Made by a program: the position numbers and the translations under genes
The notes under the pieces: generated by a model
Database searches by the model: none
What the model was told of the DNA's origin: nothing
The model's input: only the letters and a program-made list of their open reading frames with translations
NCBI GenBank assembly: GCA_021846515.1
Contig: JAJZWU010000001.1
Coordinates: forward strand, 62,001-126,000
DNA length: 64,000 bases
Direction of reading: 5' to 3'
Source of the DNA: Actinomycetes bacterium
GTDB taxonomy: Bacteria; Actinomycetota; Acidimicrobiia; Acidimicrobiales; JAMCPL01
Part shown: positions 20,855 to 33,335 of the stretch, piece after piece
Layout: each line of letters starts with the position of its first letter
Numbering within the stretch: position 1 is the first letter of the stretch

Positions 20855-21928
20855 ATGACAGCGGCTATTATCAACTTAACACATCACGATACTTATATTC
20901 ACTGGGGATTCATACTAATTTCACTCTCCAACTTTCTAGTCGTAGTCGCTATGTTGGCGTTATTCGCCCTTGCCGTGTGCGTGCCATTCATACATTCCAG
21001 GAATAAGCGACAACGCGATGCTGCCGCCAAGGAAGTGCATCCCGGCGTGAATGTAGGTGGTGGCGCTGGGGACAGTACGGAGAGAGATGGGAACGGTACG
21101 AGTAAGACCGAAGGTGATACCGAGGGATCCGGTAGAGCGCAAACAGCCTCATCAAATACCCCAGAGGCTGCTCCAGTACATACCGATACTACAGCTGGCG
21201 ACACCTCCGACGATGGACTTTGGACCGCCGCAGCCAGGCGAATATGGCTTAAGTACCTCCCACCGAAGAAGATGCTGCCCGACAGCCAACCATCCTATGT
21301 GTCTTCATGGGTGTATGTGTTCGGTGTACTCACCTTATCTGCACTGGCGGTCGTAATACTCTCCGGCCTCGTTCTGGCTATAAAGGGACCCACTTGGTGG
21401 CATACATCGTCTATAGGTCATTTTGACAATTCCCTGCATCTGTGGAGCGTTGAGATGTTTATGGCATTTATGGCAATTCACCTGTGGGGCAAGTTCTGGA
21501 TGGCGGCGTGGAGGGGAGGCCGAGCGGCAACTTGGATCACCGGGGTACTCGCCTTTGTTGTTTCCATAGTGGAGGCATTCACAGGATATCTCTCCCAGAC
21601 CAACTTTGACTCTCAATGGATCGCATTCGAATCGAAGGATGCATTCAACGCATCGGGTGCGGGCTCTATCCTCAACCCTATGAACTTCGGACAGGCTCTT
21701 ATGTTACATATAGTATTGATCCCGGTGGTGCTGGTCGTACTGGTTGGTATACACATCCTCCTGGTGAGGGTACGTGGTGTAGTACACCCGATAGACGCAC
21801 TCGATGAAGACAGGAATCCCCAAGGAGATAATAGCTCGTTACGCGATGCTATTTCTGGAGGAGATGCCCCTCAGGATGGCAGCCCAGAGGGTACCGGGAA
21901 GGAGGGAGTTAAGGAAAATGTCCACTGA
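20855..21928 (+). CDS. Cytochrome b, N-terminal (b6-like) half with extra N-terminal helix
   Basis: Di-haem quinol-oxidising membrane subunit. Core helices A-D lie at about residues 150-320. Four histidine ligands are visible: first pair in SLHLWSVEMFMAFMAIHLWG (13 residues between) and second in MLHIVLIPVVLVVLVGIH (14 between). The 13/14 spacing is that of b6-type rather than mitochondrial cytochrome b. The core is preceded by an additional membrane helix (about 22-46) and a roughly 90-residue hydrophilic linker, and followed by a 55-residue polar tail. The next gene supplies the C-terminal half. No Rieske or cytochrome c gene is adjacent. 357 residues. Confidence 0.85.
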   Translation: MTAAIINLTHHDTYIHWGFILISLSNFLVVVAMLALFALAVCVPFIHSRNKRQRDAAAKEVHPGVNVGGGAGDSTERDGNGTSKTEGDTEGSGRAQTASSNTPEAAPVHTDTTAGDTSDDGLWTAAARRIWLKYLPPKKMLPDSQPSYVSSWVYVFGVLTLSALAVVILSGLVLAIKGPTWWHTSSIGHFDNSLHLWSVEMFMAFMAIHLWGKFWMAAWRGGRAATWITGVLAFVVSIVEAFTGYLSQTNFDSQWIAFESKDAFNASGAGSILNPMNFGQALMLHIVLIPVVLVVLVGIHILLVRVRGVVHPIDALDEDRNPQGDNSSLRDAISGGDAPQDGSPEGTGKEGVKENVH

Positions 21929-21943
21929 GAAGGAAGAGCGTCC

Positions 21944-23080
21944 ATGAACACACCCGCAGAAAATAGCACTGGCGAGGAAGTCAGCGAGCAGAGGGATGTC
22001 AGCGGAAGCACTGGCGCCGATTCAGGAGAGGGAGTCGGCCACCACCTGGATGCCAACAATCTAGATCCCAGGCAATTACAAAGATATCGACGAAAGCTTG
22101 ATGCACTGCCATGGCGAGGCCCAGAGCGGCGCTACGATATATTAAAGGAAGCTACCATTGCTTTTGCGGTCGTACTGATACTCACGTTTGTGTTGGCGAT
22201 TCTCTTCTCATCTCCAGATGTACCACCAGTCACTATAAAGGCGTGGGCAGATGCCCAACCAAAAGGCTTCACGGAGATAGCCCTCACCGAACTGGAGGGA
22301 ACAAGCAATTCTGCCACATACGGCCCTCCGTACAATCACGGCAACGGCTCAGTACAATATCTGGGACCAGTCTCAATCCAGAAGTTACTGGGTGTACATT
22401 ACCCGATCAACACTGCACAAGATTTTGTGCTGGATCCCCTGGAAACGCTTCCAGGCGAAAGACCGCTCAAAGCAGCCATACTGACCTACGAAAAAGCAAA
22501 CATAGCCCAGCGACATGCCTGGGAAGCTACATACGGTACCGCATTGGCGAATGCAACCGTACATCGAGGAGCCTTGCTGGTACCCCCCGGAAACTACGGC
22601 CCATTGGGCAAGATGTTTACAAACCTACTTACTATGGCTCAATCGGGTGCACTCGACTCTCAGCTTATATCACATAGTAGTTTTTATACGACCGACTACA
22701 CCAAACCAATTCTCTTCATCGGTGACTCATGGAAAGCCCAGCACACGGCCAGTTACTGGGGCCAGCAGGTAGTTGCTCAGCATCTCCGTTCCAGCCAATG
22801 GGGAGTAATGAACGAGACTGGCAGCTGGCCTGGTCAACCATGGCTCTGGTTCTATACGATGTGGTATCAGATACCTCCCATGTCTACTACCCAGGCCGCA
22901 AACGGCGACATACTGGTGGTCGCCATTGTAAGTGTCTTTACACTTGCATTGCTGCTGCTCCCCTTCATCCCATGGCTACGAGACATACCAAGGAAAATAC
23001 CAATACACAAACTTATCTGGAGGGACTATTATCGCGACATAAAAAACCGAACGAGTAAGGCCACCGGCAGGGATCCATGA
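21944..23080 (+). CDS. Cytochrome b C-terminal half-like membrane protein with large extracytoplasmic domain
   Basis: 378 residues: a charged cytosolic N-terminus, a membrane helix at about 69-90, some 210 residues outside, and a second helix at about 326-345. The segment after the last helix, IPWLRDIPRKIPIHKLIW, closely resembles the C-terminal end of actinobacterial-type cytochrome b, and PWLWFYTMWYQIPP just before it may stand for the PEWY region, without the Glu. No CxxCH is present, so no haem c. It follows the b6-like gene by 15 nt with AGAAGGAAG as ribosome-binding site. Subunit-IV assignment is inferred from the tail and gene order. Confidence 0.65.
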   Translation: MNTPAENSTGEEVSEQRDVSGSTGADSGEGVGHHLDANNLDPRQLQRYRRKLDALPWRGPERRYDILKEATIAFAVVLILTFVLAILFSSPDVPPVTIKAWADAQPKGFTEIALTELEGTSNSATYGPPYNHGNGSVQYLGPVSIQKLLGVHYPINTAQDFVLDPLETLPGERPLKAAILTYEKANIAQRHAWEATYGTALANATVHRGALLVPPGNYGPLGKMFTNLLTMAQSGALDSQLISHSSFYTTDYTKPILFIGDSWKAQHTASYWGQQVVAQHLRSSQWGVMNETGSWPGQPWLWFYTMWYQIPPMSTTQAANGDILVVAIVSVFTLALLLLPFIPWLRDIPRKIPIHKLIWRDYYRDIKNRTSKATGRDP

Positions 23081-23236: not shown

Positions 23237-24562
23237 ATGGCAAGATCGAGCCAGAACATCTTTCAGGTAACCTACCCTCTACTGGGGAAAGACAGTATTC
23301 ACCTTGGAACCACCACAATTGGTCTGGTTGCAGCTTCAGCAATGCTAACTGCAGCTATCTCTTCACTGTGGCTTTCCCGGCATCACAGTAACAGCCTGCG
23401 TAAGACAAGTAACATAGCGTTGGCCGGTCTTGCTACTATGTCGATAGGGTTCATCGCTATGTCCGGTGCGAAAGATTTACCCGAGTATGTTATTGCAGCT
23501 ATGTTTGCTGGGGCCGGGGGCGGGCTGACCCTGCCCAGCCTTACTTCGCTGGCCGCTCATTCCAATCCTGGTAATCCAGGAAAGGGTATCGCACAATACA
23601 CGGCAGCACTGAGTATGTCTCTCCTTGTAGGTCCTGTGGTAGAAAGTGGTGTACTTGCACTATCTGGCGAATCGCTTAGAACAGCAATGGTCGTGTTTGC
23701 CCCTTGGCCGTTGGTTGGTATGGTAATTATTGTATATGCAAGAAGCCGGAATGGACTCATCCGCCATCCGTTCAATCCCCTCTCTCAGGCTCAGGCTCAG
23801 CTACATCCACAGCCTGGCCGGTCAGGCGAATGCAGCTTTCCTCATGACTTAGGAGATGCGTCCAATAACAACATACCAGAAGGGTCTGACGGAGAGGTAA
23901 CCGAGTTGCCCAATAGAGGCATAATGCCAGAACTGTCTAATGAAGGTATGCCAGAAGACAGTTTACCTGTAAAGAATAATCCTATCATGCGAGATGACAC
24001 CGATCCATCACAAGGCAATCCGCATAAGAGACCATTCAGATTACCCCTCCTCATCCAACTTGCATATCAGGTACCTTTTGTGGCCATAGTATCCTTTGGC
24101 GGCCTCCTTGCTATCCACGTAGACCACACAAGTGCAGGAGAGGTGACACTTCTTTTTGCTGTATTTTATGCCGTATCACTGATTATGCGCCTGAGTCTGG
24201 CATGGAGACCTCCCGGCAAAAGAAGTATGAAAATCGTAAGGATATCTCTGTTGCTGACTGTAGCAGGAATTACCATGCTCACCACCCACAGCCTACCGGT
24301 TTTAGTCGGAGGCTTTATATTGCTCGGATTTGCTCACGGCACTACCTATCCAATTTCGCTCACTCTGCTGGCGGAGGGATCATCGCCGGGGAACCTGATG
24401 AGGAACAACGCTCGCCTGGCGTCTATACAGAGTTTTGTGGGGGTAGTGCTTCCGGCCATTCTGGGTGCAAGTATAGATTTGCTTGGGTTTACTTCAACAT
24501 TCGCTCTCATCCTGATACCGGTAATCGGTTTCGGTATACCCGCTTGGCGCTGGAAACACTAG
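23237..24562 (+). CDS. MFS transporter
   Basis: A major facilitator superfamily protein of 441 residues from ATG 23237. Two bundles of hydrophobic helices are separated by an unusually long (about 85 residues), acidic and Pro/Asn-rich cytosolic loop around 175-265. Codons upstream of the ATG are open back to a CTG at 23174 and encode a hydrophobic stretch that would make a proper first helix (VVLSATGILGVAVLATAF), so the true start may be upstream at a non-ATG codon. Substrate unknown. The stop TAG abuts repeat family A. Confidence 0.8.
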   Translation: MARSSQNIFQVTYPLLGKDSIHLGTTTIGLVAASAMLTAAISSLWLSRHHSNSLRKTSNIALAGLATMSIGFIAMSGAKDLPEYVIAAMFAGAGGGLTLPSLTSLAAHSNPGNPGKGIAQYTAALSMSLLVGPVVESGVLALSGESLRTAMVVFAPWPLVGMVIIVYARSRNGLIRHPFNPLSQAQAQLHPQPGRSGECSFPHDLGDASNNNIPEGSDGEVTELPNRGIMPELSNEGMPEDSLPVKNNPIMRDDTDPSQGNPHKRPFRLPLLIQLAYQVPFVAIVSFGGLLAIHVDHTSAGEVTLLFAVFYAVSLIMRLSLAWRPPGKRSMKIVRISLLLTVAGITMLTTHSLPVLVGGFILLGFAHGTTYPISLTLLAEGSSPGNLMRNNARLASIQSFVGVVLPAILGASIDLLGFTSTFALILIPVIGFGIPAWRWKH

Positions 24563-25502: not shown

Positions 25503-25985
25503 TTATACGTGTTCCAACACGGAATCTGCAGAACTGACCTTTACACCCGGTCCCTGCTCCACAAAGAGAGCCTGCAGTACACCATTCTCTATTACTGCAG
25601 CATATCTCTGCGAGCGCAACCCCATACCAAAACCCCTGCCATCCATATCGAGACCCATGGCCTTGGCGAAGTCTCCATTGCCGTCAGCCAGCATAACCAG
25701 CTTACCGTCCACTCCATTGGCTCTGCTCCAAGCATCCATAACATACACGTCATTGACAGCTATACAGGCAACGGTACTCACTCCTCTCTCTTTCAACTCA
25801 TCTGCCCTGTAGATGAACCCAGGGAGATGGAGATCGGAACAGGTAGGCGTAAAAGCTCCCGGAACGGCAAACAATACTACCTTGCCGTTACCCAGAGCTT
25901 CAATGGTATTTACTTTTTGCGGCCCGCTTACACCCATGGTCATTACCTCAACATCAGGAATCCGTTCACCTGTAGAAATTGTCAC
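25503..25985 (-). CDS. Peroxiredoxin, Prx5 type
   Basis: Thiol peroxidase of 160 residues that reduces peroxides. The peroxidatic cysteine is in PGAFTPTCS with its supporting Pro and Thr. No second cysteine is located where a typical resolving Cys would be, so it probably works with an external thiol such as a glutaredoxin or mycothiol. Start is GTG at 25985, with AAAGGAG 6 nt upstream. It diverges from the SufR-like regulator, which could control it. Confidence 0.9.
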   Translation of the reverse strand: MTISTGERIPDVEVMTMGVSGPQKVNTIEALGNGKVVLFAVPGAFTPTCSDLHLPGFIYRADELKERGVSTVACIAVNDVYVMDAWSRANGVDGKLVMLADGNGDFAKAMGLDMDGRGFGMGLRSQRYAAVIENGVLQALFVEQGPGVKVSSADSVLEHV

Positions 25986-26268
25986 TGCTATCTCCTTTGC
26001 TCCTTTATTTTATATCTTTACTACACATCTCGACTACTTGACTACTTGGCCATCGTCCATAGCCATACCTGCGATACACAGATAAAAAGCTGATGAACAA
26101 CTAAAATTAGTTTAGCAGGACAAGCAGTGAAATCGAGCTATGCCCTGACTACCGCCGTAGTATACAGCTGGCCTTTTGTTCCCAATAGGCCAGACCAACA
26201 ACAGCTTCTTCTCTCCTGCCAAAGCATACAACCAGCAGGAATGAACATGGGAAGGGGAAAATACAGGA

Positions 26269-26282
26269 TATAATAGATAAAT
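26269..26282 (+). promoter_or_regulatory. -10 hexamer of SufR-like gene, leaderless type
   Basis: Consensus TATAAT (26269-26274) lies 8 nt before the GTG start. An inverted repeat CTGGCC...GGCCAG lies about 90 bp upstream in the shared intergenic region. Confidence 0.5.
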
Positions 26283-27104
26283 GTGACATACAATAACAGT
26301 GGAAATGTCAGCAACGACCTGAATAGCGAAAATGACGAGGCTATACGGTTGCAGGCAAAAGCACTCTGTGACCGTACACGTTACAACATTTATAATGCTA
26401 TATGTTCCAGCACCGAGCCCCTAACGGTCGCCGAGCTCACTGCTGAGTTCAGGTTGAATCATAATGCAATACGACAGCACTTGGCTGTACTCGTAAACGC
26501 TGGCTTAATAAAAGAAGAGCTGGAATTAAAACGCGCCAATCCAGGTAGGCCCCGGCTATTTTACAGCGCCACGGAACGAGAGAATCTGGCTTTTCGTCGT
26601 AATGACATAAGCCATAACAGATATAACCACATTGCTCTTTTGCTCGCCAAGGCCATAAATAGCAATATGAAACCGAGAGAACTGGGTAGGATAGCCGCAA
26701 CAGACACATTTTTCGCACCCATCACGACCGAATCCACATACTCAAATAGTTCCGAGTCTTCAGGGGATGCTAAGCCTGGAGTAAGATCAAAAAAGGATCA
26801 AACTGCCAAAAGTACCTCGAAACAAAGTGCCTCAGACTATATAGAGGCAATAGATGGGATAATACGTGCGATGGCAAGAGAGGGTTTTAATGCCAGAATC
26901 GCGAAGCAGGGCAGTCAGGTAGAGCTGGTAATAGACAACTGCCCGTTTAGCGATATAGCTGATGCTGCACCACAAGTAATGTGTGACCTTCACTTGGGTA
27001 TGGCAGAAGGAATTGCAGCAGTAGCCGGTAATATCCGCATAGTCGATCTTAAAAATCGCCGTACACATAATGACGGCTGCCGTTTAGTTCTCCAGGAATC
27101 TTGA
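26283..27104 (+). CDS. SufR-like winged-helix regulator, probably Fe-S binding
   Basis: 273 residues. The N-terminal ~95 residues form an ArsR-like winged helix (AELTAEFRLNHNAIRQHLAVL as recognition region, then GRPRLFYS). After a Ser/Lys-rich linker, the C-terminal domain carries cysteines in DNCPFSD, VMCDLHLG and DGCRLV, the spacing pattern by which SufR-type regulators hold an iron-sulfur cluster. It is thus likely a redox or Fe-S sensor. No suf genes are nearby; the divergent peroxiredoxin is a candidate target. Start GTG at 26283 from the TATAAT spacing. Confidence 0.75.
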   Translation: MTYNNSGNVSNDLNSENDEAIRLQAKALCDRTRYNIYNAICSSTEPLTVAELTAEFRLNHNAIRQHLAVLVNAGLIKEELELKRANPGRPRLFYSATERENLAFRRNDISHNRYNHIALLLAKAINSNMKPRELGRIAATDTFFAPITTESTYSNSSESSGDAKPGVRSKKDQTAKSTSKQSASDYIEAIDGIIRAMAREGFNARIAKQGSQVELVIDNCPFSDIADAAPQVMCDLHLGMAEGIAAVAGNIRIVDLKNRRTHNDGCRLVLQES

Positions 27105-27543: not shown

Positions 27544-29541
27544 TCAGCATGCCAGGTCATCGTCCCAATTGTCGCCACCATAGCTTGGCTGCGACGACCA
27601 TTGCCACAACCATACAGGACCACCAGTAAATTGAACTGTGCTTGATCCATATATGCTGTATGCAGCAGAACACGACGTCTGTTTGCCCTGCACAGGATAC
27701 CCTGCAAACCATTCGGGGAGTGGTATAGCAGTAGAATTGCCGGTTAGCGACGACCAATCGCTGGAATTGGAGTATATGCCGACACCTACCCCACGAGATG
27801 CCAAACCATTGGCAAAACCCTGGAGGAGTTCTATGTTGCCGGCAGTGGACGCAGTCATGGGATCACCAGACTCGAAATCAAGCCACCACATTGAGGAATG
27901 AAGACCAGACGCTACCGCCTGATTGTAATCGGCCACTGCAGAGTAAAAGCCGTAGTTGTAATAGCTCATGTTGGATCCCGAGTCCCAAGCTACAAGCGCG
28001 TACAGACCATAGGAAGAGGCTGACGATGCCCATGTACCCTCTGCAGCCATACAGGGATTCTGGCCAGGCGGAATATTTGCCGGGTACTCATTGACACCCA
28101 CTATCGCAATCTCGCCAGATGAAGGTACGGGGGGCAGGCTACCGGCAAGGCTTGAGTTACTGCCGGAACAGTTTGGCCAGGATACATCCCAGCCGGTCGC
28201 ACCGGATGTCCACGGATCGGACGGATGAGCCATAGAAGAAAAGCCCGCGCATTGGGGTATGGGCGACGAGTACGTATTGAAATTGGGTGTGGTAACTTCA
28301 TGGTCAGGTACCCACCAACCGTTGGCCAGTTCGTCCCATACGTCTGAACCGCCTACAAAGTCACCTATTCCCTGGCAAAGAACTTGTACGGTGGTGCCGG
28401 AAGCAAGACTTCCTTCATCGGTGGTGTAGTTGCTTGGCCCGGAATGTTGATCATAAGCAGCTGCCATACTGTATGTATAGTCTGTACCCAAAGACAAGAT
28501 AGCAAGTTGTACTGACGGTGACGTCTTCCCGCTGGAGTTGGTAACAGCTATAGTAGCTGTAGTCCCGGGAGCTACCTGCCACTCAGTGCTCTCTCCGTCC
28601 TGTCCACTGGGAGTCGGTACGTCGAATACCACCTGCGTATCTGACCAAGATACAATTGTAAAAGTAGCGGCATCGCCAGGAGCGCCCCAGCTTGTACCAT
28701 TATCCACAAAGTCTACATATCCCGATCCCTGGGTGGCGCCAAAATCTGAGCCCGATATAGTGACAGCCTCGGTCTCGTAAGCACTGGAAGGCGACACCGA
28801 GACAGCCGGTGGAGAGCTGGTAGTAAACGACTGAGGTCCGGCGGCGGATCCCTCGCCAACTGCGTTTACTGCTGCAACATATATGCTGTAAGCAGTCGAG
28901 GAACTTAGACTACCCAGGTTATAGCTGGTCGCAAATGCCACGGTAGAGCTAAAAGAGGGCGTCTGAGGCGCAGTCGAGCAATCTCCAAGACATATCCTCT
29001 GCACATCTGTAGTCGTGGACGTATCGACACCTATTACATAGCCTGTAATACCAGACCCACCGTTGGAGGATGGAGCAGACCAGCTGACGGTGGCGGTGGT
29101 AGAGCCGGTTGCACTGGCCGATAGATTGGTAGGAGTACCCGGTACGGTAGTGGAAGGAGCTACCCAGGTAACGGTAACTGCCTGTGAGACCAGCTGTACC
29201 TGCTGACCGCTACTCGTTCCTACTACAGCCTCAAAACTCTCTGCCCCAGGTGACGATAGGCTTGTAGTAGTGGAGCATGTAAGTACTCCGTTGCATGCTT
29301 TCAAAATATCTTTGGCCGCTGGATTAACGATCAGTAAATCATAGGTAGCCGGAATTGCTTTATTCAGCGTAGCAACCAGGGTAACGGACTGGCCGACCGG
29401 CAGTGAAGCAGAGGATGAGGTTAGGGTAGCCGTAATCCCCGGTAGGCAAGCACTTAGTATGCCGCCCGCTATAATAGACGCAGATCCTGCAACCAGCAGG
29501 AGCCTGCCCTTCTGTACGAACCTCCCAACCTGATTGGACAT
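27544..29541 (-). CDS. Secreted lipoprotein with FnIII, IPT and glycoside-hydrolase-like domains
   Basis: From the ATG at 29541 a basic n-region and hydrophobic core end in the lipobox LSAC (Cys32), so it should be a membrane-anchored lipoprotein. Order: a Ser/Thr-rich beta domain; a fibronectin type III domain (about 133-245, starting PGTPTNLSASATG); an IPT/TIG-like domain (about 250-345, SGSDFGATQGSGYVDF); and a C-terminal GH25/DUF1906-like TIM-barrel region (about 455-665; WDVSWPNCSG, MWWLDFESGD, GVGIYSNSSDW). The last suggests a wall-active hydrolase. The frame is open to a TTG at 29679, but the signal peptide favours 29541. Confidence 0.75.
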   Translation of the reverse strand: MSNQVGRFVQKGRLLLVAGSASIIAGGILSACLPGITATLTSSSASLPVGQSVTLVATLNKAIPATYDLLIVNPAAKDILKACNGVLTCSTTTSLSSPGAESFEAVVGTSSGQQVQLVSQAVTVTWVAPSTTVPGTPTNLSASATGSTTATVSWSAPSSNGGSGITGYVIGVDTSTTTDVQRICLGDCSTAPQTPSFSSTVAFATSYNLGSLSSSTAYSIYVAAVNAVGEGSAAGPQSFTTSSPPAVSVSPSSAYETEAVTISGSDFGATQGSGYVDFVDNGTSWGAPGDAATFTIVSWSDTQVVFDVPTPSGQDGESTEWQVAPGTTATIAVTNSSGKTSPSVQLAILSLGTDYTYSMAAAYDQHSGPSNYTTDEGSLASGTTVQVLCQGIGDFVGGSDVWDELANGWWVPDHEVTTPNFNTYSSPIPQCAGFSSMAHPSDPWTSGATGWDVSWPNCSGSNSSLAGSLPPVPSSGEIAIVGVNEYPANIPPGQNPCMAAEGTWASSASSYGLYALVAWDSGSNMSYYNYGFYSAVADYNQAVASGLHSSMWWLDFESGDPMTASTAGNIELLQGFANGLASRGVGVGIYSNSSDWSSLTGNSTAIPLPEWFAGYPVQGKQTSCSAAYSIYGSSTVQFTGGPVWLWQWSSQPSYGGDNWDDDLAC

Positions 29542-29845
29542 GCCAGCATGCATCCCAAGGCCACCCCAAATACCATGCAAACATGTCCTAATATCACTAA
29601 AGTATCTTTTGACTATCTCCACCTGCATCCACCTCCCAATTCCTACTCTGCCGCAAAACGACTCTCTCGGAGTGTTCAATAGTCAACACTACCGACAAAA
29701 ATCCTCTGTTGCTCCATTTATCCTATCGGCGACATCCGTAGCGTTATTATAACACGAGTGGAATAAAATTGTCAATAAGTTTACTCCCCTGGATTTTCTT
29801 TTGACCTCCTCTCACGGCTAAAGCTGACAGAAGGGGAAGAAATGG
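29542..29845. other. Intergenic region with promoter and leader of lipoprotein gene
   Basis: No gene. A consensus promoter at 29746-29775 directs minus-strand transcription. If translation begins at 29541, the leader is about 200 nt; no known riboswitch was recognised in it. Confidence 0.5.
29746..29775 (-). promoter_or_regulatory. Consensus sigma-70-type promoter of lipoprotein gene
   Basis: TTGACA (29770-29775), an 18-bp spacer and TATAAT (29746-29751) on the minus strand. Both hexamers are perfect, unlike most promoters in this window. Confidence 0.75.
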
Positions 29846-32800
29846 CTAAGAGCCAGTGAAGTACTCATACAGATCTACCAGTACGTTTACACTGCCAGAC
29901 GAGCCGTTGTAGATAGTTATATCGCCACTCGAGTTCAGGGTAGCAATTACGAAATTGGGAACGGTAGAAGATGGCGCATCCCAATTCAGATCTGAAGTCT
30001 GTGGAGGAGTAGTTGCCGGATCTACTGATAGATATCCTGTCGTCGCAGTCTCTCCCAACGCGGTCAGATTGAGCGCAACCGCCGTTACACCGGAGGATGG
30101 TACGTTGCCAACTTCTGCAACCTTGACAGATAGCACCTGCCCGGCTGTCAGAGTGTGGCCGTTACACTGAGCCTGGGTGCCTGAAAGATTTGACGGGTTG
30201 CCTGACCTGGTATCACATATGCGTACCGGACTTATTGCTACACTGTCCGAGCCAGTGGTACTTGAAGTCCCAGTACTACCTGCGTAATACCCGGACACAT
30301 CCAGAACAGCATTGGCAACAGAAGAGCTGAAAAGATTTATATACCCGTTGGCGCCCAATCCCACAATTGTCTGATTGGCGCGAGTCTCTCCAGCCACCCA
30401 ATTCAAGCTGGATGCTACAGGCCGAGACTGCCCATCCGGATAAACGGTAAAGTAACCTGATGATCCCGGTGTTGCTACTGTCTGATTCACCACTACCGCT
30501 GATGCGGTATCCGGTATGCTGCCCACACCTCCAATACTCACCGCTTCACTCTCTCCCGCCTGTGGGGTCTTCAGCGATGCATTGGCTAAAGGTAGGCTAT
30601 TGCAATACGACTTATTTGCAGAATAGTACGATGCTTGCGAACACCTCGTATCGAGTACACGAATTGGAGATGTCAGGGCTACATACTGGCCCCCGGTAGA
30701 CGAAGTAGAGGCATCTTCAGTGTAACCCTCTACATCTACAATCACGTTCGTACTGCCAGCATTATTATATATGGTTATGCTTCCTGCATATGTCCCAGAA
30801 GATGGTAAGGGAACTGCAACAAGATTGGAGACCGGCGCCGCGCTGCTCAGATTAAGACTTGAAACCACCGGTCGCGAAGTGCCTGCCGGATAGAGAGTAA
30901 GATAGCTTGGAGCTGTTGCTCCCACGGCTGTAACATTCATGTAGGCAGTAGTTGCACTTGACGGAATACCCGATACGCCTACTACTTTTATCGCAAGAGT
31001 ACCGGCAGGACCTAACGGCTTACCCTCACATTGTGTAAGTGCAGTTCCAGATAGGTTCGATGGATTACCCGATCTGGTGTCGCATATACGAGTAGGGGTT
31101 ATCGGCTGATAGATTCCCGACGTACTCCCTGACGAGGAAAGTGAACAAAGTGCCGGGACAAGGACAGCCCCATTTGGAGTGCCTATACCAGATGCCATGT
31201 CGTAACCTATCGTGGCAGGATACAGCCCATTGTTTGTCCCAGTTGCATCATTGTCGCCGCTGGTGATATCGTAAAAAGCCCCAGAATCATCGGTAGCCAG
31301 CTTGTATAGAGACGGATTGATGAAACCAAGCGGACCACTACCACAGAGTTGATTTGCCATAGTAATTATTGATGCCCAAAGCGGGGTAGCCATAGAGGTA
31401 CCGGCAACCAGCTCCCAGCCAATATTGTTGCAACCACCGGCAGTACAGTACATAGGATACCCCACGCTTGCATTAGCCGATACATCGGGGACTTCCCTGC
31501 AATATCCGGAAGAGGCTCCGCACGGATTACCGGAAGAATACTGATTGACTACACCCGGCGCCGATTGCCAGGAAGGCATTGGCCAAAATGCCGATATGCC
31601 TCCACCGCCGCCTTCTCCATGGTTATTATTCCATACTGTCTCAGTACGAGGAGAACCGAGCGAGCTGAGGTCGGTGCCGCCTACCCCCGTAACATAGGGA
31701 TCGCTTGCAGGGTCCTTAACGGCAAGCGAAGTATCTGGGTGTGATGCACCGGCTACATAGCATCCGGAAGATCCGGTATCCCCCGCCGCAGCAAGAACCG
31801 TCTGGCCCTGAGATGCCGCCTGCTCAAATAGGGTTTCCTCCGCCTGTGCCTGAGATATACCTACCACTTGTTCACAATTACCGTAACTGATGCTTATTAC
31901 CTGGGCTTTATTGTCGTCTACAGACGTTTGAATTGCATCGTAATAGCCTGTACCCGTATCTGGAGCGACATAAGCATCCACCGTAGCATCTGGCACCATG
32001 CCGATAATGTTCTCCACATCACTGGTAGCTTCATTGGTGTTTGCATTTAAGGTTCCTCCACCGTCGACAGGAACGACATTTACCGCAGTAGATACTCCGT
32101 AGCACTTTTCATAGGTTGCAATATCCGACGACGAGAATGCCCCAAGTTCCACCAGTCCTACAGTCTGACCCGCTCCATCTCCTCCGCTGGAATAGACATG
32201 ACCCAGATTGTACCCCTGACTCAGTAGCTGTGGTGTATAGCCTTTTGTAGAGGATGCCCCACTACATGCCTGAGGAGGAGCGGTAGCTGTGGCATCTGAG
32301 ATGGGGACAGGAACGAGCTGCGGCAAAGGTCTGTTAACGGTAGATAGCCCCATTACACCCTGGATTGCGTTGCTCACAGTATACGGAACCTTGGGGTAAC
32401 TTGGCACAAAACGCGCTATACGGCCACTTCTCAGCCTGATAAGATCAAACTTCACATGAAACGCTTTCGATACCTTCGACAAAGCGCCAGACACAGGAAT
32501 AGATAAGTGATTTTTTGAAGGCAGACCTGGGTAAAGCCCCTGGGAGCGTAACCTCTTTAAGATAGTATCTATGACATGGATAGGTTGGCCAAACCTTACA
32601 GCAAACTCATGCACTGTAAGGTAATGCCTGTAGCCAGGCGATCCCGGAGTAGATACCTCTTGCACAAAGCGGCTGAGAGAGCTGGGGTCTTTGGGGGCCA
32701 GGCTCACCACCATATTTATAGTATTTGAGGATGGAGGGGCGCCAACCATACTGGCTCCGTATGGCATCCGTATGGCCCCATGGCCCAACGACACAAGAGT

Positions 32801-32935
32801 GCTTCCAGAGATACTACCGTGCTCTGCTGCTGGATTGGCTGCTGCTCCGTAAGATGTATTTGTCGGCATTGCCATGGCCACCAACGGTGCCACTACGATG
32901 CCTGCCCAGAGTACGATGTTGCGTACTGCAGTCAT
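29846..32935 (-). CDS. Sedolisin (S53, kumamolisin-like) protease with three C-terminal repeat domains
   Basis: Secreted pepstatin-insensitive serine-carboxyl protease. From ATG 32935 (1029 residues): signal peptide (residues ~1-30), inhibitory prodomain (~45-190), catalytic subtilisin-fold domain (~215-600). Glu and Asp lie four residues apart in NEATSDVENI (~300) and the Ser is in GTSMATP (~512). YDMASGIGTPNG near the catalytic end fits the calcium site. Three ~130-residue beta-rich repeats follow, each opening like PTRICDTRSGNPSNLSG; the first and third are closest. The family acts at acid pH, which hints at an acidic habitat. An upstream in-frame start exists at 33079. Confidence 0.88.
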   Translation of the reverse strand: MTAVRNIVLWAGIVVAPLVAMAMPTNTSYGAAANPAAEHGSISGSTLVSLGHGAIRMPYGASMVGAPPSSNTINMVVSLAPKDPSSLSRFVQEVSTPGSPGYRHYLTVHEFAVRFGQPIHVIDTILKRLRSQGLYPGLPSKNHLSIPVSGALSKVSKAFHVKFDLIRLRSGRIARFVPSYPKVPYTVSNAIQGVMGLSTVNRPLPQLVPVPISDATATAPPQACSGASSTKGYTPQLLSQGYNLGHVYSSGGDGAGQTVGLVELGAFSSSDIATYEKCYGVSTAVNVVPVDGGGTLNANTNEATSDVENIIGMVPDATVDAYVAPDTGTGYYDAIQTSVDDNKAQVISISYGNCEQVVGISQAQAEETLFEQAASQGQTVLAAAGDTGSSGCYVAGASHPDTSLAVKDPASDPYVTGVGGTDLSSLGSPRTETVWNNNHGEGGGGGISAFWPMPSWQSAPGVVNQYSSGNPCGASSGYCREVPDVSANASVGYPMYCTAGGCNNIGWELVAGTSMATPLWASIITMANQLCGSGPLGFINPSLYKLATDDSGAFYDITSGDNDATGTNNGLYPATIGYDMASGIGTPNGAVLVPALCSLSSSGSTSGIYQPITPTRICDTRSGNPSNLSGTALTQCEGKPLGPAGTLAIKVVGVSGIPSSATTAYMNVTAVGATAPSYLTLYPAGTSRPVVSSLNLSSAAPVSNLVAVPLPSSGTYAGSITIYNNAGSTNVIVDVEGYTEDASTSSTGGQYVALTSPIRVLDTRCSQASYYSANKSYCNSLPLANASLKTPQAGESEAVSIGGVGSIPDTASAVVVNQTVATPGSSGYFTVYPDGQSRPVASSLNWVAGETRANQTIVGLGANGYINLFSSSVANAVLDVSGYYAGSTGTSSTTGSDSVAISPVRICDTRSGNPSNLSGTQAQCNGHTLTAGQVLSVKVAEVGNVPSSGVTAVALNLTALGETATTGYLSVDPATTPPQTSDLNWDAPSSTVPNFVIATLNSSGDITIYNGSSGSVNVLVDLYEYFTGS

Positions 32936-33335
32936 TATCCTTCTTCGGTTTCCTCGGCTCGTAAAATGAACCTCCTCCCCACGGATAAAGCCAGAGGTCT
33001 GCGCTCGCCTCTCAATCATGATGCCCACCGGTATGATACTAAGCTTCGCTCGCTCGTCTCTCTGTAATACGCCATCCATACATATTATTCGGTTGTTCGA
33101 CCGGCCGGAAGCACCACCAACGCCAATGAGCGATAAGTATGGTACACCATCTGCCCATATTAGTGAATTATCCGGCAGTACGCCATTACAGTACTATGCT
33201 TATATAAATATTCTATCAATTTTTCCATATATCCCTACCCCCCTGGGATGGCATCTGATAAAATAGCTATAATAACGTTTGTTCAGTGCTCAAGTTACCG
33301 AGAGCTGGAGACATACCTAAAAGAAAGGAGTAATT
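32936..33335. other. Divergent region between sedolisin and copper genes
   Basis: About 400 bp. The left part could extend the sedolisin frame upstream (to 33079), but without family similarity. The right part is AT-rich and ends in the copper operon promoter and operator. No RNA gene recognised. Confidence 0.5.
33231..33273 (+). promoter_or_regulatory. copZ: Copper operon promoter with possible CsoR-type operator
   Basis: TATAAT (33268-33273) has no good -35. The expected -35 position falls in an inverted repeat at 33231-33249 with arms ATCCC and GGGAT around a C-run. G/C-run palindromes of this kind are bound by the copper repressor CsoR in actinobacteria. Assignment is tentative; no csoR gene is in the window. 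Confidence 0.35.

What the first reader, a model, noticed from the sequence alone, without database searches (positions are those of the whole stretch)
20855..23080. Split b6-like cytochrome b with large extracytoplasmic insertion and no Rieske partner
The first gene has four haem-b histidines with 13/14 spacing (b6-type), plus an added N-terminal helix and linker. The second looks like a C-terminal half (two helices, cytochrome-b-like tail) but has about 210 extra residues outside and no intact PEWY motif. Neither Rieske, cytochrome c nor CxxCH is nearby. This may be a quinol-oxidising module with a different electron acceptor, perhaps relevant to iron or sulfur redox chemistry.
Basis: partly seen in the sequence, partly recalled or inferred. 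Interest (0 to 1): 0.65.

Follow-up and report, generated by a model that had tools for sequence, protein, structure and literature searches.

The report
Rieske-less cytochrome b complex, oxygen-stress linked
Two neighbouring genes encode an undescribed membrane electron-transfer complex, a haem-b protein paired with a partner that matches no known protein family, which recurs in hundreds of acid-soil and mine-drainage Actinobacteria and is, in many relatives, wired to the low-oxygen "dormancy" regulator DosR.

Summary
Gene 1 (20855-21928) is a b6-type cytochrome b N-half: four haem histidines (13/14 spacing), invariant in 107 relatives, with an added N-terminal helix. Gene 2 (21944-23080) is a two-helix protein with about 230 extracytoplasmic residues. 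It has no PEWY, no conserved Cys, and no Pfam, NCBIfam or PDB match by sequence or fold; profile comparison does not support calling it a cytochrome b C-half.

The pair is one conserved three-part module: H (single-helix piece), N (cytochrome) and C (partner). Across 114 loci it occurs as separate genes, mostly joined by 4-base overlaps, and in every adjacent fusion, including one chain. At least 522 loci occur in public genomes. No Rieske or cytochrome c gene is adjacent. N forms its own clade beside conventional QcrB and b6, and the window's genome also carries a canonical qcrB and Rieske gene.

New here: many relatives carry exact DosR/OsdR-type boxes upstream (12 of 75; 0.36 expected), several are followed directly by a DosR orthologue, and recurrent neighbours are DosR-regulon types. 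The window's own operon has no box, though its genome has a DosR orthologue.

Best reading: a Rieske-independent menaquinol-linked cytochrome b complex used when oxygen is short. The electron partner is unknown.

The parts
20855..21022 (+). H part: single-helix N-terminal piece (res. 1-56, helix 28-46, N-terminus outside) of gene 1; a separate ~55-aa gene in most relatives
   Evidence: hydropathy and positive-inside; separate H ORFs with 4-base overlaps to N in relatives
21023..21208 (+). polar cytoplasmic linker fusing H to N (res. 57-118)
   Evidence: sequence; length and sequence vary among relatives
21209..21808 (+). N part: four-helix b6-type cytochrome b N-half (res. 119-318)
   Evidence: Pfam PF13631 39.3 bits; PDB 6kls, 1q90 matches; hhalign 98.5% to QcrB
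21437..21439 (+). haem ligand H195 (helix B), 13 residues before H209
   Evidence: 100% of 107 relatives
21479..21481 (+). haem ligand H209 (helix B)
   Evidence: 100% of 107 relatives
21707..21709 (+). haem ligand H285 (helix D), 14 residues before H300
   Evidence: 100% of 107 relatives
21752..21754 (+). haem ligand H300 (helix D)
   Evidence: 100% of 107 relatives
21944..23080 (+). C gene: two-helix partner with large extracytoplasmic domain, no known family
   Evidence: no Pfam/NCBIfam/PDB match; next to N in all 114 loci classified, fused to it in 27
22211..22906 (+). extracytoplasmic, mostly helical domain (res. 90-321) between the two helices of C
   Evidence: AlphaFold2 model m2a46ad9e0fac, pLDDT 84 overall and 84-98 per block through the domain core; no PDB fold match, best E 0.87
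22832..22849 (+). GQPWLW motif in the position that PEWY takes in cytochrome b
   Evidence: GQxW(L/M)W in 102 of 106 relatives
22913..22969 (+). second transmembrane helix of C (res. 324-342)
   Evidence: hydropathy, positive-inside

Best explanation
The two genes make one membrane complex of three parts: H (one helix), N (four-helix cytochrome b with two b haems stacked across the membrane) and C (two helices plus a roughly 230-residue cap on the outer face). Inferred mechanism: menaquinol is oxidised (or menaquinone reduced) at a remodelled site next to the haems, and electrons pass between quinone, the two haems and an external partner that docks on, or is gated by, the C cap, without a Rieske protein. 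In many relatives the operon is probably switched on by the haem-sensing DevS/DosR low-oxygen system, so the complex probably serves redox balance or anaerobic/microaerobic electron disposal. Shown here: three-part composition, fusions, conserved haem ligands, lost PEWY/cd1 signatures, absence of Rieske/cyt c neighbours, DosR-type boxes and DosR genes in relatives. Inferred: quinone chemistry, direction of electron flow, the partner, actual DosR control, and that the window's own copy (which lacks the box) plays the same role.
For: Fusions in all adjacent combinations: 52 H|N|C, 31 H-N|C, 14 H|N-C, 11 H-N-C of 114 loci, and 4-base overlaps at 42 H/N and 51 N/C junctions show one functional unit. 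Four invariant haem His and invariant R220/R223/W227/G230. N forms one clade (support 100/98) separate from QcrB and from conventional b6 of the same class. No conserved Cys in N or C, and Rieske motifs in only 2 of 80 neighbourhoods. DosR context: exact GGG[AC]C-N4-G[GT]CCC upstream in 12 of 75 loci against 0.36 expected, 0-2 for altered-spacing or swapped controls; one such site, AGGGACCTTCGGCCCT (L102), is nearly identical to the predicted OsdR site AGGGACCTTCGGCCCC of Streptomyces (PMC5069765). DosR orthologue directly downstream of C in about seven loci (PDB 3c3w, E 3e-71), DevS-type haem-GAF kinase, universal stress protein, pyridoxamine-oxidase-like and Acg-type nitroreductase neighbours. 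In one distant relative (L147) it sits with PPDK, phosphoketolase and USPs. Carriers in the class have actinobacterial QcrB in 29 of 30 genomes against 27 of 266 non-carriers.
Against: No quinone site is demonstrated: both hallmarks of the quinol-oxidising site (PEWY, and the PW of the cd1 loop) are replaced. No cofactor ligand is conserved in C, so how electrons leave is unexplained. The window's own operon has no DosR box (best 3 mismatches) and sits next to sugar-nucleotide genes. More than half of the tested loci lack an obvious box. Co-occurrence with QcrB is partly shared ancestry.
Confidence: 0.45

Rival explanations
1. C is a highly diverged cytochrome b C-half (helices E and F with an enlarged ef loop, PEWY drifted to PWLW), so the module is an ordinary Q-cycle cytochrome bc complex that borrows the Rieske and cytochrome c of the canonical complex encoded elsewhere.
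For: N-C fusions have the order and topology of cytochrome b; helix count and sidedness fit helices E/F; PGQPWLWxYxxWYQIPP followed by a helix resembles PEWYF...LRSIP by eye; Foldseek of the one-chain form finds cytochrome b of bc1 complexes (best E 1e-6). Canonical Rieske/QcrB exist in the genome and co-occur with the module.
Against: Profile comparison of C with QcrB: probability 0.3%, while N scores 98.5% in the same test. C alone has no PDB fold match. The catalytic Glu of PEWY is absent in all relatives and the cd1 PW is replaced by SQxN. The genome's own QcrB is complete, so a shared Rieske would serve two cytochromes.
Confidence: 0.25
2. The module runs inward: it takes electrons from an outside donor (for example Fe(II), superoxide or another reductant) and reduces the menaquinone pool, like the b-haem superoxide oxidase CybB in direction.
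For: A two-haem wire with no conserved second cofactor suits a small external donor; many carriers oxidise iron (Acidithrix L112, Ferrithrix L095; PMC5143472).
Against: The family also occurs in soil and bog Solirubrobacterales and other Actinobacteria not known for iron; low-oxygen regulation fits output better than input. In-situ spectra of two iron-oxidising genera were dominated by a-type, not b-type cytochromes (PMC5143472).
Confidence: 0.15
3. The complex is a redox or haem sensor, or an assembly/regulatory partner of the DosR circuit, rather than a catalytic electron-transfer enzyme.
For: dosR is the next gene in several relatives, and no cofactor-binding residue is conserved in the outer domain.
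Against: Full conservation of four haem ligands and the cytochrome core over very distant relatives; a DevS-type kinase with its own sensor domain is already present nearby in some; the module is not always near dosR.
Confidence: 0.1

Closest known systems
Cytochrome b6 / cytochrome b N-half (PF13631, PF00033; b6f and bc1 complexes)
   Same: Four helices, four haem-b histidines with b6-type 13/14 spacing, conserved glycines, R/R/W of the helix B-C region
   Different: Own clade; no Cys for haem cn; cd1 PW motif replaced by SQxNFDSQW; no Rieske, cytochrome f/c1 or detectable PetD homologue attached; extra H helix
Actinobacterial QcrB (NF050120) of the bcc complex
   Same: Homologous N-half; found in the same genomes (29 of 30 carriers)
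   Different: Only 27 bits against a cut-off of 500; C has no detectable relation to the QcrB C-half
ExtP, selenite/tellurite-operon b-type cytochrome (NF040969)
   Same: Best NCBIfam hit of N, E 7.5e-11, 42 bits
   Different: Far below the 290-bit cut-off; no ext-type operon seen around it
DosR/DevR (OsdR) dormancy regulon
   Same: Boxes, regulator gene and regulon-type neighbours next to many relatives
   Different: No cytochrome is named in the OsdR paper searched (PMC5069765: 0 mentions of 'cytochrome'); the window copy lacks the box

Membership tests
cytochrome b (N-half) superfamily | four haem-ligating histidines in two helices with 13/13-14 spacing | tested here: met
   H195, H209, H285, H300, 100% in 107 relatives
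cytochrome b (N-half) superfamily | profile match above curated cut-off | tested here: met
   PF13631 39.3 bits, cut-off 27
cytochrome bc/b6f complex | cytochrome b C-half or subunit IV with PEWY-type motif | tested here: not met
   C lacks PEWY, no profile match to QcrB C-half
cytochrome bc/b6f complex | Rieske protein in the same locus | tested here: not met
   none in window; motif in 2 of 80 relatives within 9 kb, not adjacent
cytochrome bc/b6f complex | cytochrome c1/f/cc subunit in the same locus | tested here: inconclusive
   no ORF with two or more CxxCH in 80 neighbourhoods; single CxxCH not examined there; window CxxCH only in three spurious-looking frames
cytochrome b6 with covalent haem cn | Cys in helix A at the b6 Cys35 position | tested here: not met
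   no Cys column above 25% in N
quinol oxidoreductase | quinone binding and turnover | not testable with these tools
   needs protein
DosR regulon member | DosR-type palindrome upstream | tested here: inconclusive
   present exactly in 12 of 75 relatives (0.36 expected), absent upstream of the window's operon
DosR regulon member | induction by hypoxia through DosR | not testable with these tools
   needs expression data

The most novel reading that the evidence does not exclude
HNC is a new kind of respiratory complex: a Rieske-free cytochrome b that moves electrons between menaquinone and an external acceptor through a previously unseen helical cap domain, and is a hitherto unlisted low-oxygen (DosR-controlled) branch of electron transport in environmental Actinobacteria.
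Probability: 0.33. Interest if true: 0.82.

Novelty: new variant of a known kind. Interest (0 to 1): 0.62.

Why it matters
Cytochrome b is normally tied to a Rieske protein because quinol oxidation there depends on splitting the two electrons. A widespread cytochrome b module that keeps both haems but carries an unrelated domain on the side where Rieske would dock would test how far that rule holds. If the DosR link is real, it also adds a respiratory component to a dormancy regulon studied mainly in Mycobacterium and Streptomyces, and offers a candidate for the route of anaerobic iron reduction in acidophilic Actinobacteria.

Tried and rejected
Filing gene 2 as a cytochrome b C-half was rejected: hhalign of C against 13 QcrB gave 0.3%, there was no convincing Pfam hit in 22 members, no PDB profile hit, and no fold match. 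A nitrate-reductase-like partner was suspected for two distant relatives (L057/L058) because of large neighbouring ORFs; by their sequence these read as glutamate synthase subunits, so rejected. A neighbourhood conserved across the whole family was not found; only DosR-type genes recur. A borrowed second Rieske in the genome: the C52 hit is a 109-residue soluble ferredoxin-like protein, not a membrane Rieske. A whole-genome CxxCH DNA pattern is too unspecific to count cytochromes c. Papers found did not describe this cytochrome module.

Full report
What is there. Gene 1 (20855-21928, 357 aa) matches Pfam Cytochrom_B_N_2 above its cut-off and PDB cytochromes b and b6 at E 6e-10 to 1e-7. Gene 2 (21944-23080, 378 aa) matches nothing in Pfam, NCBIfam or the PDB sequences, alone or as a 22-member alignment. 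Hydropathy gives one helix in the N-terminal extension of gene 1, the cytochrome helices (three of the four pass the simple cut-off; the haem-bearing helix B is less hydrophobic), and two helices in gene 2 flanking about 235 residues. Positive charges place the N-terminus of gene 1 and the large domain of gene 2 outside.

A conserved three-part module. The best 80 are mostly acid mine drainage, bog and soil Actinobacteria, including Acidithrix ferrooxidans (L112) and Ferrithrix thermotolerans (L095), plus Solirubrobacterales and Streptosporangiaceae MAGs. More distant relatives occur elsewhere in the phylum, and within one well-sequenced genus carriage is patchy, 6 of 11. In 114 loci the extension (H), the cytochrome (N) and the partner (C) occur as H|N|C (52), H-N|C (31, the window's form), H|N-C (14) and H-N-C (11), with six in which H was not found by search. 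Separate genes usually overlap by four bases; in the window N and C are separated by 15 bases.

Residues. In 107 distinct N sequences the four histidines H195, H209, H285 and H300 are invariant, with R220, R223, W227 and several glycines. There is no conserved cysteine in N or C, so no covalent haem cn and no iron-sulfur site. The cd1 segment, PW(D/G)Q in cytochromes b, is SQxNFDSQW; the position of PEWY is GQ(P/A/S)WLW. Both outer-side signatures of the Q-cycle oxidation site are thus rewritten, consistently across the family.

Is C a cytochrome b C-half? Not by the tests available. Profile-profile comparison with 13 QcrB sequences of the same class gives 98.5% for N and 0.3% for C. An AlphaFold2 model of the window's C protein with 80 aligned sequences has mean pLDDT 84, with most of the outer domain core above 84 per block, yet has no PDB match better than E 0.87. 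A model of the natural one-chain form (pLDDT 73.5) finds cytochrome b of bc1 complexes (best E 1e-6), which the N part alone could explain. Topology and the order in fusions remain compatible with a very remote C-half; this is kept as the main rival.

Relation to conventional complexes. The window's genome has a canonical QcrB with adjacent Rieske on contig C55, one haem-copper oxidase and no detected cytochrome bd; the assembly is about 92% complete. A maximum-likelihood tree, rooted at the midpoint for drawing only, places all HNC cytochromes, including the most distant ones, on one side of a branch (support 100/98) apart from QcrB and from the b6-type Rieske complexes of the same class. HNC carriers almost all have the actinobacterial QcrB (29 of 30; non-carriers 27 of 266; Fisher p 1.6e-23). 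Shared ancestry inflates that p-value.

Neighbourhood and regulation. No gene is a constant neighbour. Rieske motifs occur in 2 of 80 neighbourhoods and never adjacent; controls were recovered (the first pattern, missed actinobacterial QcrA and was replaced). What recurs is the DosR circuit: a LuxR-type regulator in 20 loci, directly after C in about seven, best PDB match DevR of M. tuberculosis, E 3e-71; a haem-GAF sensor kinase matching DevS and DosT; universal stress, pyridoxamine-oxidase-like and Acg-type nitroreductase genes (the Acg and nitroreductase naming is by eye). In one distant relative the module sits among PPDK, phosphoketolase and stress-protein genes. Upstream of H, exact GGG[AC]C-N4-G[GT]CCC palindromes occur in 12 of 75 loci against 0.36 expected from the rest of the same loci; altered-spacing and swapped controls give 0-2. 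The sites lie mostly 50-130 bases before the start and match the OsdR consensus and predicted sites published for Streptomyces (PMC5069765). The window's own upstream region has no such site (best 3 mismatches), although its genome has a DosR orthologue at 57% identity. The regulatory argument is therefore about the family, not proven for this copy.

Mechanism. Shown: composition, haem ligands, missing partners, regulation signals in relatives. Inferred: electrons move between menaquinone and an outside partner through the two haems under oxygen shortage. Carriers in culture reduce ferric iron without oxygen (PMC8790237), which makes Fe(III) a possible sink in acid habitats, but nothing here ties the module to iron specifically.

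Noticed in passing
L169-L174: The class uses two different conventional cytochrome b types: actinobacterial QcrB (56 of 296 genomes above cut-off) and, in genomes examined among the others, a split b6-type Rieske complex.
   Followed up: partly
G000:C4:21949-22566 (L148, L156): The window's genome has a DosR orthologue (57% identity), but it lies beside an alcohol-dehydrogenase-like gene and tryptophan genes rather than stress-protein genes, with no exact DosR box nearby.
   Followed up: partly
window 23237-24562: MFS transporter gene next to the module; seen there otherwise only in the same genus (G287).
   Followed up: no
window 25503-27104: Peroxiredoxin-like gene (-) close to an ArsR/HTH_20-type regulator (+, 26283-27104).
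   Followed up: no
window 27544-33079: Two large secreted-looking proteins: an FN3-like repeat protein and, by eye, a sedolisin-like (S53) peptidase, plausible for an acidophile.
   Followed up: no
L145:2998-3237: In a very distant relative a 79-aa ORF sits in the H position although it lacks the H-W residues, suggesting H is ancestral.
   Followed up: partly
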